A stretch of 64,000 nt of DNA from Acetobacteraceae bacterium (GTDB lineage: Bacteria > Pseudomonadota > Alphaproteobacteria > Acetobacterales > Acetobacteraceae), in assembly GCA_947475245.1 (NCBI GenBank), contig CANJLW010000005.1, forward strand, positions 62,001 through 126,000, in the 5' to 3' direction. A program made the translations under genes and the position numbers. A model generated the notes under the pieces. It did not search any database, was not told the DNA's origin, and saw only the letters and a list, made by a program, of their open reading frames with translations. Positions 18,826-22,350 of this stretch are shown in pieces (positions within the stretch are counted from its first letter, which is position 1; every line of letters begins with the position of its first letter).

Positions 18826-19281
18826 TCAGCAATTCGTGGCCGAGATGGTAACTGCAAAATTAGATGCGCCACCGGTGCCGCAGAACGAATATGTCCCGGT
18901 TCCGGACCAGGGAATGGTACCGGTCAGGTTCGCGCGGACATTATAGGCATAGGTTCCACCGGAACCGTAATTGTAGGTAACCGTGCCCGGTCCCTGCGGG
19001 CCACCGGAACCGGCGGTTGCATAGGTCCCCGTGGGATTGCTGGCCGTCGCGGACGGGTCCGTCGCGTGTGACGGCCCTAGTTTATAATCCAGAACCTTGC
19101 CTGCGGTATGCAGTTCGTTCCAGGTGGCATTCGGGGAACTGCCGATACAGGCATAACGATTGTTCAATAAAGACGACAACTGCGCGCCTGTGATGTTCGT
19201 TCCGCTCGAGCATACCTGAGCAAGAACCGGTGTGGCACCGAACGTCGCCGCGATCGACGCCACGATTATGAGTCGCTTCAT
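18826..19281 (-). CDS. Small secreted protein of unknown function
   Basis: 151 residues. A classical signal peptide (KRLIIVASIAATFGATPVLA, residues 2-21) precedes a mature chain of about 130 residues. It has four cysteines (VCSSG, YACIG, SFCGTG and the C-terminal residue), fitting two disulfides. The middle is Gly/Thr/Ser/Tyr-rich (PTGTYATAGSGGPQGPG, TYNYGSGGTYAYNV), suggesting an all-beta extracellular protein. A GGAG ribosome site lies upstream of ATG 19281. It lies between the O-antigen-ligase-like gene and the TPR-sulfotransferase on the same strand. I do not recognise the family; a surface or matrix component is a guess from context. Confidence 0.7.
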   Translation of the reverse strand: MKRLIIVASIAATFGATPVLAQVCSSGTNITGAQLSSLLNNRYACIGSSPNATWNELHTAGKVLDYKLGPSHATDPSATASNPTGTYATAGSGGPQGPGTVTYNYGSGGTYAYNVRANLTGTIPWSGTGTYSFCGTGGASNFAVTISATNC

Positions 19282-19348: not shown

Positions 19349-21223
19349 TTACACTGAAGGATTCGTGCGCGGATCCGCGTCCGGCACCAGGGCGCGAAGC
19401 TCGCCGAGCCATGGCTCGTAACGCCGCCAGCGCTCGACGGAGGTTCGGTAGATTGGCTGGCGCGCTTGCCACAAGCTGGCGGTTGCGATCTGGCGTTGGT
19501 TGCGGTGCGGCGAAAGGCAGGCATCGTCCCATTCCAGGCCGCAGGTCGCGATCAGTTGGCGGGTCAAGGGTTCGGGATCGCCGACGAGGGCTTCGTATTG
19601 GATATCGATGAACCGATCCGGGGGCAGCACCGCGTGCCAATGCGCCATCAGCTTTTCGTATTCGCGATAGAAGCATACGAGGTCGCCGCGATCGGCGGCG
19701 AAATCGAAGGCGTTCTCGAAGTGCGTCGTGTAGATCGACAGGCAGATATCGATCGGGTTGCGACGGCAGTGCACGATCGTGGCACGCGGGAAGAGTTGGC
19801 GGATCAGCCCGAGGCGTGAGAAGTTGAACGGCATCTTGTCGGTGACCCGGGCCGCATCCGGGGAGATCGCGCGCAGAACGTCCAAATATTCCTTTGTCAC
19901 GATCCCCGCGCGTTCGGCATTCGCATCGGCGCCGAACACGCCGATGTTCCCATGTTTGGCGTCACGCCAGAAGTGGAGTTCACCCCCCGCCGCGACCTTT
20001 GGATGACTCGACAAAATCTGCTCGACCAAAGTGGTGCCCGATCGAGGCATGCCGACGATCAGGATCGGGGTCGGGTCGTCTGTGCGAACATCGGGCCGTT
20101 GATCCAAAAAGCCCGGCGGCGTGGCGGCGATCAGGTGCTGAGTTTGCCGAGCCAGCAGGTCGCGGTTGAACCCCCCGGCGGCGGCGCGAATGGCGTTGGC
20201 GGCGTCGAAATGCCGCATGGCCGTGGGATAATCCTTCAGATCGTCGTGAACCTTGCCCAGGGCGAACAGCAGCGGCTTGCGTTGACCGGGAGAGACCGCC
20301 GGCCGTGCCGCCAGGTCGACCATGCGGTCGATCAGCTCCTGGTCCGCTTTGGTGAATTTCTTGATGACGGCAAGGGAATACCAGGCGGGAAACAGCCTGG
20401 GGTCGAGGGTCAGGCCGCGTTCGAGATGCTCTGTCGCCAGGTCCGTTTTGCCGGTTTCGGCGTAAATCTGTCCCAGGGCCACATAGGGGGCACCGCGGTT
20501 GGGATCGTCTTCGATGGCGGCGAGCAGACACGCCTCGGCCGCGACGGAATCTTCGGCGGCGCGCGCGGCTTGCGCCATGTACAGTTGTGCGTCGGCCACC
20601 GACAGGCCGGGGGTCGCGGCAGCCGCCCGGAAGGCGGATGCGGCTTCCTCGCGCAATCCATGGCTGACCTGGATTTGGGCGACTCGCGCGCGTACGACGT
20701 GGTTGGCGGGATCGAGACGGAGGACTGTTTCGAAGACGGCAACGGCTTCGCGCTCGTGCCCCATATGATCGAGTACGGTGCCCAGCGTCAGATGCGCCGG
20801 CAGCAAAGTGGAATCCAGGCGCGCGGCCTGGCGCAGTGCTTCGACCGCTTCGTCGGTTTGGCCCGCGCCGAGACATGCCAGAGCGAAATCATGCCATACG
20901 GCGGCGACGGCCGGGTTCAGTTCGAGAGAGCGCCGGAATGTCGGAATGGCGCGATCGAAGTGACCGGACTTTGCCAGGCGCGCGCCAAGCAGGGCTTGTT
21001 GGCGGGCATCGCGGATGCGGGCCTTGGACAGTGGAGGCGGCGCTGCCGGCAAGGCGGGCGCGCTCGGCGCACCGTCAGGCACAAGGGGAAGCCGACGGGC
21101 GCGATCATATTCGACGGCCGCGCGGCCCAGGGCGGTCAAGGGGCCAATCGGCAACCTTCCCACGGTATCAGGTTTGGGATCGGGTTGGCGGACAACGCCG
21201 ATTTCCGGTGTAGATCGTGCCAT
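19349..21223 (-). CDS. TPR-domain sulfotransferase
   Basis: 624 residues. An Ala/Pro-rich N-terminus (1-65) is followed by tandem TPR units over about 70-345 (for example AKSGHFDRAIPTFRRSLELN, TDEAVEALRQAARLD, GKTDLATEHLERGLTLDP). The C-terminal domain is a PAPS-dependent sulfotransferase: 5'-phosphosulfate loop PILIVGMPRSGTTLVEQIL (residues 386-404), acceptor-side helix DKMPFNFSRLGLIRQLFP, and 3'-phosphate site IVHCRRNPIDICLSIY (about 483-498). It likely transfers sulfate to a glycan or protein. The TPR-sulfotransferase fusion is common in proteobacteria, but targets are mostly unknown. Here it lies in a surface-glycan neighbourhood, upstream of the small secreted protein. Confidence 0.88.
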   Translation of the reverse strand: MARSTPEIGVVRQPDPKPDTVGRLPIGPLTALGRAAVEYDRARRLPLVPDGAPSAPALPAAPPPLSKARIRDARQQALLGARLAKSGHFDRAIPTFRRSLELNPAVAAVWHDFALACLGAGQTDEAVEALRQAARLDSTLLPAHLTLGTVLDHMGHEREAVAVFETVLRLDPANHVVRARVAQIQVSHGLREEAASAFRAAAATPGLSVADAQLYMAQAARAAEDSVAAEACLLAAIEDDPNRGAPYVALGQIYAETGKTDLATEHLERGLTLDPRLFPAWYSLAVIKKFTKADQELIDRMVDLAARPAVSPGQRKPLLFALGKVHDDLKDYPTAMRHFDAANAIRAAAGGFNRDLLARQTQHLIAATPPGFLDQRPDVRTDDPTPILIVGMPRSGTTLVEQILSSHPKVAAGGELHFWRDAKHGNIGVFGADANAERAGIVTKEYLDVLRAISPDAARVTDKMPFNFSRLGLIRQLFPRATIVHCRRNPIDICLSIYTTHFENAFDFAADRGDLVCFYREYEKLMAHWHAVLPPDRFIDIQYEALVGDPEPLTRQLIATCGLEWDDACLSPHRNQRQIATASLWQARQPIYRTSVERWRRYEPWLGELRALVPDADPRTNPSV

Positions 21224-21654
21224 GCTCGGCCCTTAGGGGTTTAACCGCCGCGGTGCATATCGGTTCGTGGCCCGTACGCGCAACAGTTGCGTTTTTCGGT
21301 TGGGATTGTCCGTTGTAGCCCCTGAAGAGTCGGAAATTCTTACACCACGGCGCAGCGGCGGGTGCCTGACGGGCAAAATCAGGCGGAACAGGTATTCCGT
21401 TGAGAGAGAATTTATCAAAGATCAGCCTGACGCGCCACGAGTAACCGAGGGTTGGCCATGATGTGTCGGGATTTTTTACAAATTGGGCGTACAGCGACGC
21501 TGATCTCCGCATCTATGCCTTTTAGGGCATTGAAATTATGGGATTGTACTAACTTGGCACGAAGGGTGCATGGCTGGACTCGAGTTTAAGGGCGGTCGCT
21601 GCCAAAGCGCGGTTTGTCCTACGTGACGCTGACGCGATATCTGAGGAGAGTGCT
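21224..21654. other. Divergent regulatory intergenic region without a gene
   Basis: 431 nt between the divergent sulfotransferase and PEP-CTERM genes, noticeably more A/T-rich than the surrounding coding DNA. No convincing ORF was seen. It contains three inverted repeats: CGCAACAGTTGCG at 21279-21291 followed by TTTTT, GCCTGA with TCAGGC at 21364-21384 (9-nt spacer), and ATGCC with GGCAT at 21515-21530. A sigma-54-type promoter lies at 21554-21570. The repeats are possible activator sites. Confidence 0.6.
21554..21570 (+). promoter_or_regulatory. Sigma-54 (RpoN) promoter of the PEP-CTERM gene
   Basis: TTGGCACG-N4-GTGCA matches the consensus TTGGCACG-N4-TTGCA at all but one position. The invariant GG (21556-21557) and GC (21568-21569) are separated by exactly 10 nt, as required for RpoN holoenzyme. 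It lies 84 nt upstream of the ATG of the PEP-CTERM protein gene and in its orientation. Sigma-54 control of PEP-CTERM genes through the PrsK/PrsR two-component system is known in other proteobacteria. Confidence 0.8.
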
Positions 21655-22275
21655 ATGACGTTAAAGTCCATCATGCTGACAGGGGCCGCGGTGCTGGGTC
21701 TTTGCGCGGCGACCGGCGCGGCGCAGGCCGCGGCGATTTCGGCGATTTCGACGAACCAATGGTACACTGGCCAGTTCGAGAGCACGGTCGGTAGTTCATT
21801 GACTGGGCCAAGCTTCGGCGCATCCGCTCTTGGCGTGAACGGCCCCATTCTGCCTTCGGGCACCGCGAATGCGATCGATGCTCCGGCGGACACAAGCTGG
21901 ACCTTTACGCTTGTTAACCCCGGTTATCTCACGATCACTGACATGGAGCAGACGGGCGACCGCTTCGAAGTGTTTCTGAACGCGAGTTCAATCGGCCTGA
22001 CCTCCGCGCCGGGTGCCGCGAGCGCCGTCTGCGGTAACGACATCGGCTGCGCGCTGGGTAACTCCGATTATAGCTCGCTCGCGAATTACGCCCTGTCGCC
22101 TGGGACGTACACCCTGTCCGCCACAGTGAACGCAATCTTCAGCTCGGGTGACTTCAGCTTCTATATTGGCGAGAACGCCACGTCCGAAGTGCCGGAACCC
22201 GCGACGATGGCCGTTCTCGGCCTTGGTCTCGCCGGTCTTGGTTACGCGCGTCGGAAGCGTGCCCGCGCCGTCTGA
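21655..22275 (+). CDS. PEP-CTERM sorting-domain protein
   Basis: 206 residues with a Sec signal peptide (KSIMLTGAAVLGLCAATGAA, cleavage near AQAAA, residues 22-27). The mature chain is beta-rich and Gly/Ser/Asn-rich, with one Cys pair (VCGNDIGC). The C-terminus is a full PEP-CTERM signal: VPEPATM (from residue 179), the hydrophobic AVLGLGLAGLGYA and the basic RRKRARAV. Such tails are recognised by an exosortase (EpsH family) and processed at the inner membrane as the protein is exported to the cell surface or matrix. No exosortase gene lies in this window. ATG 21655 has a strong GAGGAG site, and the gene is preceded by a sigma-54-type promoter and followed by an intrinsic terminator, so it looks monocistronic. 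Confidence 0.92.
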   Translation: MTLKSIMLTGAAVLGLCAATGAAQAAAISAISTNQWYTGQFESTVGSSLTGPSFGASALGVNGPILPSGTANAIDAPADTSWTFTLVNPGYLTITDMEQTGDRFEVFLNASSIGLTSAPGAASAVCGNDIGCALGNSDYSSLANYALSPGTYTLSATVNAIFSSGDFSFYIGENATSEVPEPATMAVLGLGLAGLGYARRKRARAV

Positions 22276-22304
22276 AGCCAGTTCAAACCTCAGATTGGAT
22301 ACCG

Positions 22305-22328
22305 CCAGGGCCGCTTCGTCGGCCCTGG
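22305..22328 (+). terminator. Intrinsic terminator of the PEP-CTERM gene
   Basis: A 9-bp perfect stem (CCAGGGCCG with CGGCCCTGG) and a CTTCGT loop, followed by TTTCGTTTC, 30 nt after the PEP-CTERM stop. It also separates this gene from the convergent small gene ending at 22351. Confidence 0.75.
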
Positions 22329-22350
22329 TTTCGTTTCAGCCTACCGTCGA

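What the first reader, a model, noticed from the sequence alone, without database searches (positions are those of the whole stretch)
21554..21570. Near-consensus sigma-54 promoter drives a PEP-CTERM protein gene
Seen: TTGGCACG-N4-GTGCA with GG and GC separated by exactly 10 nt, 84 nt upstream of a PEP-CTERM gene that has its own terminator. Known: PEP-CTERM genes in some beta- and gammaproteobacteria are controlled by RpoN and the PrsK/PrsR two-component system. Inference: this alphaproteobacterium uses a similar dedicated switch for a surface or matrix protein.
Basis: partly seen in the sequence, partly recalled or inferred. Interest (0 to 1): 0.7.

Follow-up and report, generated by a model that had tools for sequence, protein, structure and literature searches.

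The report
PrsR-controlled sigma-54 promoter, PEP-CTERM gene
The reported DNA site is very probably a genuine switch-type promoter of a gene for a surface protein, belonging to a control system described in 2006, and comparing many bacteria suggests that its activator site sits at distances that change mainly in whole turns of the DNA helix.

Summary
Confirmed, and of a known kind. TTGGCACG-N4-GTGCA at 21554-21570 is the best sigma-54-like site in the window. It is motif 2 of the PEP-CTERM box of Haft et al. 2006 (PMC1569441). Four orthologs from the same genus keep the element and a distal second motif 1. The genome has one rpoN, prsK-prsR-prsT over curated cut-offs, and an exosortase A cluster. 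Of 42 PEP-CTERM genes found by model, 14 carry motif 1 plus a sigma-54 site, as do 2 more found through the element (shuffles of all 44: mean 0.02, max 1). Beyond the literature I found: spacers step by about 11.2 bp (51, 62, 74, 84, 96 nt). In the window's family, 117 of 123 elements fall in the first three classes, the range that search could see; all 33 elements recorded outside it fall in four classes. An IHF-like site is enriched in the spacer, but is weak at this promoter. No expression data were available.

The parts
21328..21344 (+). distal motif 1 copy (predicted second PrsR site), AGTCGGAAATTCTTACA, 2 mismatches to TGTCGGN5TTTACA
   Evidence: all four orthologs keep a copy with 0-1 mismatch at -322 to -332 from the ATG, here -327; between the two divergent genes the best minus-strand sigma-54 score is 3.3 in the window and 8.1 in the orthologs, so it does not visibly serve the divergent gene
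21464..21480 (+). proximal motif 1 (predicted PrsR enhancer site), TGTCGGGATTTTTTACA
   Evidence: exact match to TGTCGGN5TTTACA; 27 matches with up to 1 mismatch in the genome against 5 for the reversed pattern; kept with 0-1 mismatch in four orthologs; same form and spacer range as Haft 2006 motif 1
21523..21535 (-). weak IHF-like site TAGGGCATTGAAA (2 of 9 consensus positions wrong)
   Evidence: two other 2-mismatch matches exist in the spacer; it sits at -33 from GGC, next to the place (-32) where IHF-like sites are enriched in other promoters of this kind
21554..21570 (+). sigma-54 (-24/-12) promoter, the reported site; predicted (not measured) transcript start near 21581
   Evidence: kept at 79-86 nt from the ATG in four orthologs
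21655..22275 (+). PEP-CTERM protein gene, 206 aa: signal-peptide-like start, low-confidence beta-rich domain, PEP-CTERM tail
22304..22329 (+). terminator-like hairpin after the gene
19349..21223 (-). divergent TPR-sulfotransferase gene (context)
   Evidence: Sulfotransfer_3 152 bits and TPR repeats; a divergent related neighbour also in the four ortholog loci

Best explanation
21554-21570 is the sigma-54 promoter of a single-gene PEP-CTERM transcription unit in the PrsR regulon. Proposed working: the sensor kinase PrsK phosphorylates PrsR; PrsR binds the TGT-N11-ACA motif 1 at 21464-21480 (helped by the distal copy at 21328-21344), loops to RNA polymerase-sigma-54 held closed at -24/-12 and drives open-complex formation by ATP hydrolysis. 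The protein is exported, sorted by exosortase A through its PEP-CTERM tail and joins the exopolysaccharide matrix. Because the loop is short, motif 1 and promoter must lie on a fixed relative face of the helix, so spacers evolve by about one in-vivo helical turn (about 11.2 bp); in most promoters of this kind an IHF-like site lies in the loop. Shown by sequence: sites, conservation, co-occurrence, spacing ladder, IHF-like enrichment. Inferred: binding, looping, phosphorylation, sorting. My odds: sigma-54/PrsR control of this gene 0.9; helical phasing as cause of the ladder 0.85; IHF acting at this particular promoter 0.5; distal site functional 0.6.
For: Site and strength. Motif 1 in register. 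Four orthologs at 45-52% protein identity keep both motif 1 copies and the promoter. 14 of 42 model-found PEP-CTERM genes, plus 2 found through the element itself, carry motif 1 (up to 2 mismatches) and a sigma-54 site; on all 44 regions antisense gives 0 and shuffles mean 0.02, max 1. 53 other loci of this genome (176,543 bases) gave one such element, and that one is again a PEP-CTERM gene's (L013, the C1:105772 gene). The five other exact sigma-54 sites lack motif 1. One RpoN; PrsK, PrsR, PrsT over cut-off; exosortase A cluster. In 150 family genomes, 29 of 36 with PrsR carry the element against 10 of 114 without (Fisher p 3.7e-16, genomes not independent). Spacers: 33, 73 and 11 of 123 in three narrow classes; 33 of 33 recorded outside Acetobacteraceae at 60-64, 71-74, 83-86 or 96-97 although 20-119 was allowed. 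IHF-like sites. [quoted passage not shown] pepA of Aquincola depends on RpoN1, with a mapped start at a -24/-12 site (passages of PMC9850573).
Against: No transcript, binding or mutant data for this organism. The -12 element here is GTGC, not TTGC. This promoter's own IHF-like site misses 2 of 9 consensus positions. 10 of 39 family genomes with the element show no PrsR over cut-off, and 7 of 36 with PrsR show no element, one of them of the window's own genus. 6 of 123 family gaps lie off the three classes, and of 7 elements found in Acetobacteraceae loci by the wider scan one (spacer 34, minus strand of L306) is off the ladder. In the phylum-wide sample the 53 non-own spacings listed are noisier: a cluster at 62-67 and scatter, against about 15 reversed-control matches by my count of the table, so part is chance. 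In Geobacter sulfurreducens a PEP-CTERM gene (GSU1943) goes up, not down, about 3-fold in ihf mutants (PMC7962754 Table 2). [quoted passage not shown]
Confidence: 0.88

Rival explanations
1. The site is a sigma-54 promoter, but another enhancer-binding protein (for example NtrC or another of the NtrC-like regulators in the genome) drives it, not PrsR.
For: Five other regulators match PrsR's model over its central part but below cut-off (292-355 bits); 10 family genomes carry the element without a PrsR over cut-off; in Desulfovibrio, DVU0110 and the PrsR ortholog DVUA0057 are predicted to share a motif (PMC4641369 passages).
Against: Motif 1 is absent from the five other exact sigma-54 sites, which by eye precede PII-like, transporter-like and sensor-like genes; the element co-occurs with PrsR; a PrsR ortholog binds PEP-CTERM targets.
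Confidence: 0.08
2. The site is a chance or decayed sigma-54 match and an ordinary housekeeping promoter drives the gene.
For: The -12 element is imperfect; this GC-rich genome gives many loose matches.
Against: Kept with motif 1 in four orthologs whose other upstream DNA has diverged; best site of the window by 5.5 bits.
Confidence: 0.03
3. The spacing ladder reflects shared descent of a few promoter copies, not selection for helical face.
For: Many elements sit in related genomes; genomes such as G052 and G169 add several each; the outside set includes near-copies, e.g. Oxalobacteraceae and relatives and two Thiobacillus loci.
Against: Survives collapsing to genus-gap pairs with a PEP-CTERM tail downstream (n=66, statistic 40.4, null max 11.3) and holds outside the family (collapsed n=28, 17.9 against null max 12.5; without the main class n=13, P 0.0003, best period 11.8); one genus holds several classes, Zoogloea 73, 74, 83, 96.
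Confidence: 0.1
4. The conserved AA-N4-TTGAT element in the spacer is bound by something other than IHF (HU, an UP-element-like contact, an unknown protein).
For: IHF binding is assumed from a consensus; GSU1943 rises in ihf mutants; I did not search this genome for ihfA/ihfB.
Against: The match is to the full IHF consensus in register, without mismatch in 13 of 33 elements outside the family, and IHF commonly acts between enhancer and sigma-54 promoter (abstract of PMC7962754).
Confidence: 0.2

Closest known systems
PEP-CTERM regulatory box (motif 1 + motif 2) with PrsK/PrsR/PrsT, Haft et al. 2006 (PMC1569441; sections 7 and 19 and passages read)
   Same: 17-nt motif 1 ending TTTACA, spacer 73 nt (published 62.8, SD 10.6, range 32-92), -24/-12 motif 2, 84 nt to the start codon (published mean 71), single-gene unit, PrsK, PrsR, PrsT and EpsH in the genome; repeated motif 1 also reported there for R. 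rubrum
   Different: Haft gives the spacer as a mean and SD. The whole-turn ladder, the IHF-like element and the orthologous distal motif 1 are not in the sections I read; a term search of the main text finds 'IHF' and 'phasing' 0 times and 'helical' only in the reference list
pepA promoter of Aquincola tertiaricarbonis RN12 (PMC9850573; passages read)
   Same: -24/-12 promoter of a PEP-CTERM gene with a predicted upstream enhancer; about 85 nt intergenic region noted
   Different: Another organism; RpoN1 dependence and transcript start measured there, only predicted here; pepA is linked to flocculation, this protein has no tested function
DVUA0057 regulon of Desulfovibrio vulgaris (PMC3333781, PMC4641369; passages read)
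   Same: PrsR ortholog (so listed in Haft Table 1) binding PEP-CTERM targets, with sigma-54 promoters predicted upstream of several
   Different: Five PEP-CTERM targets, regulator on a plasmid; here 16 predicted PEP-CTERM targets in the genome
IHF-assisted NtrC/NifA/XylR-type sigma-54 promoters (general knowledge; abstract, passages and section 22 of PMC7962754 read)
   Same: Enhancer, IHF site, -24/-12 promoter in that order
   Different: Shorter enhancer distance with largely whole-turn spacing; this promoter's own IHF match is weak

Membership tests
sigma-54 (-24/-12) promoter | GG and GC 10 nt apart within TGGCAC-N5-TTGCW | tested here: met
   one consensus position (GTGC for TTGC) deviates
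sigma-54 (-24/-12) promoter | RpoN encoded in the genome | tested here: met
   one Sigma54_DBD hit, 225 bits, cut-off 22.8
sigma-54 (-24/-12) promoter | transcription starts about 12 nt after GC and needs rpoN | not testable with these tools
   needs 5'-end mapping and a mutant
PEP-CTERM box / PrsR regulon (Haft 2006) | motif 1 ending TTTACA, 32-92 nt before motif 2 | tested here: met
   21464-21480, spacer 73-74 nt (definition)
PEP-CTERM box / PrsR regulon (Haft 2006) | single PEP-CTERM gene with more than 200 nt of non-coding DNA upstream (typical, more than 65% there) | tested here: met
   431 nt between the divergent gene's start (21223) and ATG 21655; hairpin after the gene
PEP-CTERM box / PrsR regulon (Haft 2006) | PrsK, PrsR, PrsT and EpsH in the genome | tested here: met
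   all over curated cut-offs
PEP-CTERM box / PrsR regulon (Haft 2006) | PrsR binds motif 1 and activates the gene | not testable with these tools
   binding shown elsewhere only by DAP-chip of an ortholog to the targets
IHF-assisted enhancer promoter | IHF consensus site between enhancer and promoter | tested here: inconclusive
   this promoter: best match has 2 mismatches; class: 70 of 119 family elements and 27 of 33 outside have a site with up to 1 mismatch, far above shuffles
IHF-assisted enhancer promoter | ihfA/ihfB in the genome | not tested

The most novel reading that the evidence does not exclude
The PEP-CTERM box is a three-part machine - PrsR dyad, IHF bend, sigma-54 promoter - whose enhancer distance evolves in whole in-vivo helical turns (about 11.2 bp: 51, 62, 74, 84, 96 nt) across Proteobacteria. 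The IHF site sits at a class-specific place, and its orientation mostly flips in the shortest class. Genomes thus hold many natural spacing variants that record the in-vivo helical repeat.
Probability: 0.6. Interest if true: 0.6.

Novelty: new member of a known kind. Interest (0 to 1): 0.42.

Why it matters
It ties a large set of predicted surface proteins in a member of the Acetobacteraceae to a dedicated PrsK/PrsR switch and names 16 predicted PEP-CTERM target genes. The whole-turn spacing ladder and the IHF-like element, if real, turn a loosely described 2006 motif into a precise promoter grammar that can be searched, and give a natural test of how close-range bacterial enhancers depend on helical face.

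Tried and rejected
Allowing mismatches in the promoter pattern: not informative (window 6 against 10.95 expected; genome 180 against 354 reversed control). A divergent sigma-54 promoter for the TPR-sulfotransferase gene: none convincing between the two genes. 'All PEP-CTERM genes share the promoter': rejected, 28 of 44 lack it. With up to 4 mismatches in motif 1 the count rises to 18, but 5 antisense hits appear, so I use the 2-mismatch count; this drops the C7:100350 gene, which has a strong sigma-54 site (18.8) and TTTACA at the usual distance, and C6:42199. Two of the 16 targets (L112, L119) were found through the element itself, so the unbiased count is 14 of 42. The first gapped family search had an off-by-one error in my pattern (GGC-N9-TGC); it found 0 in the own genome and 6 matches in 150 genomes and serves only as an accidental control. 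One search is the corrected run: 123 matches, 4 reversed-control matches by my count of its table (my notebook says 5, which is wrong). Phylum-wide spacing: noisy, not used as support; in 12 genomes grouped as one family by the tool (f13), 12 of 15 gaps are 64-67. Protein function from fold: model mean pLDDT 60, no PDB match with E below 0.001, only weak beta-sandwich-type matches including carbohydrate-binding modules; dropped. In the outside set the organism names come from record titles; two MAGs (3 elements) are titled only 'Proteobacteria', so membership outside the family is not certain for them. The 123 family elements include one motif 1 counted twice with two promoter matches (G169).

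Full report
What was checked. The site TTGGCACGAAGGGTGCA lies at 21554-21570 with GG and GC exactly 10 nt apart and 84 nt before the ATG of a 206-aa PEP-CTERM gene. It is the best sigma-54-like site of the window by 5.5 bits (matrix frequencies recalled).

Starting 90 nt upstream of the promoter is TGTCGGGATTTTTTACA (21464-21480), which has the form of the 17-nt motif 1, ending TTTACA, that Haft et al. 2006 found before proteobacterial PEP-CTERM genes and proposed as the activator's site (PMC1569441, section 7 read; their logo figure is not held, so I compared with the text and with this genome's own consensus). Spacer (73-74 nt) and leader (84 nt) fall inside the published ranges. A second, weaker copy lies at 21328-21344.

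Conservation. In 98 genomes searched (own included), four others, all of the same genus, hold clear full-length relatives of the protein (E 2.7e-26 or better, 45-52% identity). All four keep the promoter at 79-86 nt from the ATG, the proximal motif 1 at -185 to -193 (here -191) and a distal motif 1 137-139 nt further up (here 136), while the rest of the upstream DNA has diverged. A related divergent TPR-sulfotransferase neighbour is also kept. One of the four has upstream DNA identical to that of Acidisphaera sp. S103, Acetobacteraceae, which places the window in or near that family.

The system in the genome. One RpoN hit. PrsK, PrsR and PrsT lie side by side on one strand of contig 16, each over its curated cut-off. 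An exosortase A cluster begins about 2.7 kb beyond prsK, the exosortase itself about 11 kb: chain-length determinant, autokinase-like protein (just below cut-off), outer-membrane protein, ATPase, deacetylase, FemAB-like protein, glycosyltransferase, exosortase A.

The regulon. The genome has 42 hits to the PEP-CTERM model; two further PEP-CTERM-like genes turned up behind motif 1 sites (neither matches an NCBIfam model at 1e-5). Of the 42, 14 have motif 1 with up to 2 mismatches and a sigma-54 site 40-99 nt downstream; with the two extra genes, 16 of 44; antisense 0, shuffles mean 0.02, max 1. The other five exact sigma-54 sites in the genome lack motif 1.

Co-occurrence. In 150 genomes of the family, 36 have PrsR over cut-off and 39 have motif 1 plus promoter in the strict pattern: both 29, element only 10, PrsR only 7, neither 104. 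The Fisher p of 3.7e-16 ignores shared descent. Of the 123 elements, 94 have a PEP-CTERM-like tail in an open frame downstream (a simple pattern on the stretch fetched, at most about 1.2 kb for relatives and shorter at contig ends).

The spacing ladder. Motif 1-to-GGC gaps in the 123 family elements are 51-54 (33), 61-64 (73) and 73-76 (11), with 6 elsewhere, although every gap from 46 to 76 was allowed. Collapsed to genus and gap, and only with a PEP-CTERM tail (n=66), the best period is 11.2 bp (statistic 40.4, null max 11.3). Independently, loci fetched for their PEP-CTERM tails, not their promoters, gave 40 elements in 58 proteobacterial loci: 7 in Acetobacteraceae loci (spacers 34, 52, 61, 62, 62, 62, 85) and 33 recorded outside. 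All 33 have spacers of 60-64 (19), 71-74 (5), 83-86 (4) or 96-97 (5) nt although 20-119 was allowed. The 20 non-proteobacterial loci gave 1 element. A line through class means has slope 11.2 bp. From memory, in-vivo looping studies of lac repressor give a similar helical repeat; I did not fetch a source. The window gene is in the 74-nt class.

IHF-like element. The spacer shows AA-N4-TTGA at a preferred distance from the promoter, clearest in the middle class, the reverse complement of the IHF consensus WATCARNNNNTTR (quoted in PMC7962754). With up to 1 mismatch a site occurs in 21 of 34, 43 of 74 and 6 of 11 elements of the three family classes (shuffle means 2.2, 7.0, 0.6) and in 27 of 33 outside (shuffle mean 5.4, max 12). 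Among elements with one best orientation, the forward dominates in the shortest class (14 against 6), the reverse in the middle class (35 against 5) (Fisher p 1.3e-5, not corrected for descent). This window's own copy misses two positions, so IHF action here is uncertain.

Results against. Listed in the Against line: elements without PrsR, PrsR without elements, off-ladder spacers, the noisy phylum sample, the weak local IHF match, the G. sulfurreducens ihf result, the failed prsK complementation in Aquincola.

Literature. Passages, not whole papers, were read for PMC9850573, PMC3333781 and PMC4641369; sections 7 and 19 and passages of PMC1569441; section 22 and passages of PMC7962754. I found no report of the ladder or the IHF-like element in PEP-CTERM promoters in the open-licence library, seen as listings; subscription papers are not held, so this is weak evidence of absence. 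Face-of-helix effects at sigma-54 enhancers in general are an older topic (recalled; PMC7408454 holds the term in a listing, not read).

Verdict. A well-conserved promoter of a known regulon. The new part is the promoter grammar, seen by sequence only.

Noticed in passing
window 19349-21223 (-): TPR-repeat sulfotransferase divergently paired with this PEP-CTERM gene; a related divergent neighbour stands in the four orthologous loci, and the Acidisphaera locus L240 has a second, weaker match (34% identity) on the other side. May act on matrix components.
   Followed up: partly
L129 1501-1855 (G000:C26:19858): Motif 1 (1 mismatch) + sigma-54 element (spacer 62) upstream of a 66-73 aa membrane-protein-like ORF (by eye) without PEP-CTERM tail or NCBIfam match; possible small-protein member of the PrsR regulon.
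   Followed up: partly
L112 1580-2509 and L119 1574-2629: Two PEP-CTERM-like proteins (by eye) not among the 42 PF07589 hits, found through their motif 1 + sigma-54 elements.
   Followed up: partly
genomes G117, G190, G174: Three to four elements each but no PrsR over cut-off; a diverged or missing-contig PrsR, or another regulator reading the same box.
   Followed up: no
genomes grouped f13 (L218-L229): Elements with spacers mainly 64-67 and, in several, a GTTAACCAT-like stretch in the spacer (by eye); looks like a different promoter grammar in that family.
   Followed up: no
window 18826-19281 (-): 151-aa secreted-looking protein without a Pfam match (E up to 0.1), between the TPR-sulfotransferase and a 632-aa O-antigen-ligase-like ORF (match below the curated cut-off).
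   Followed up: no
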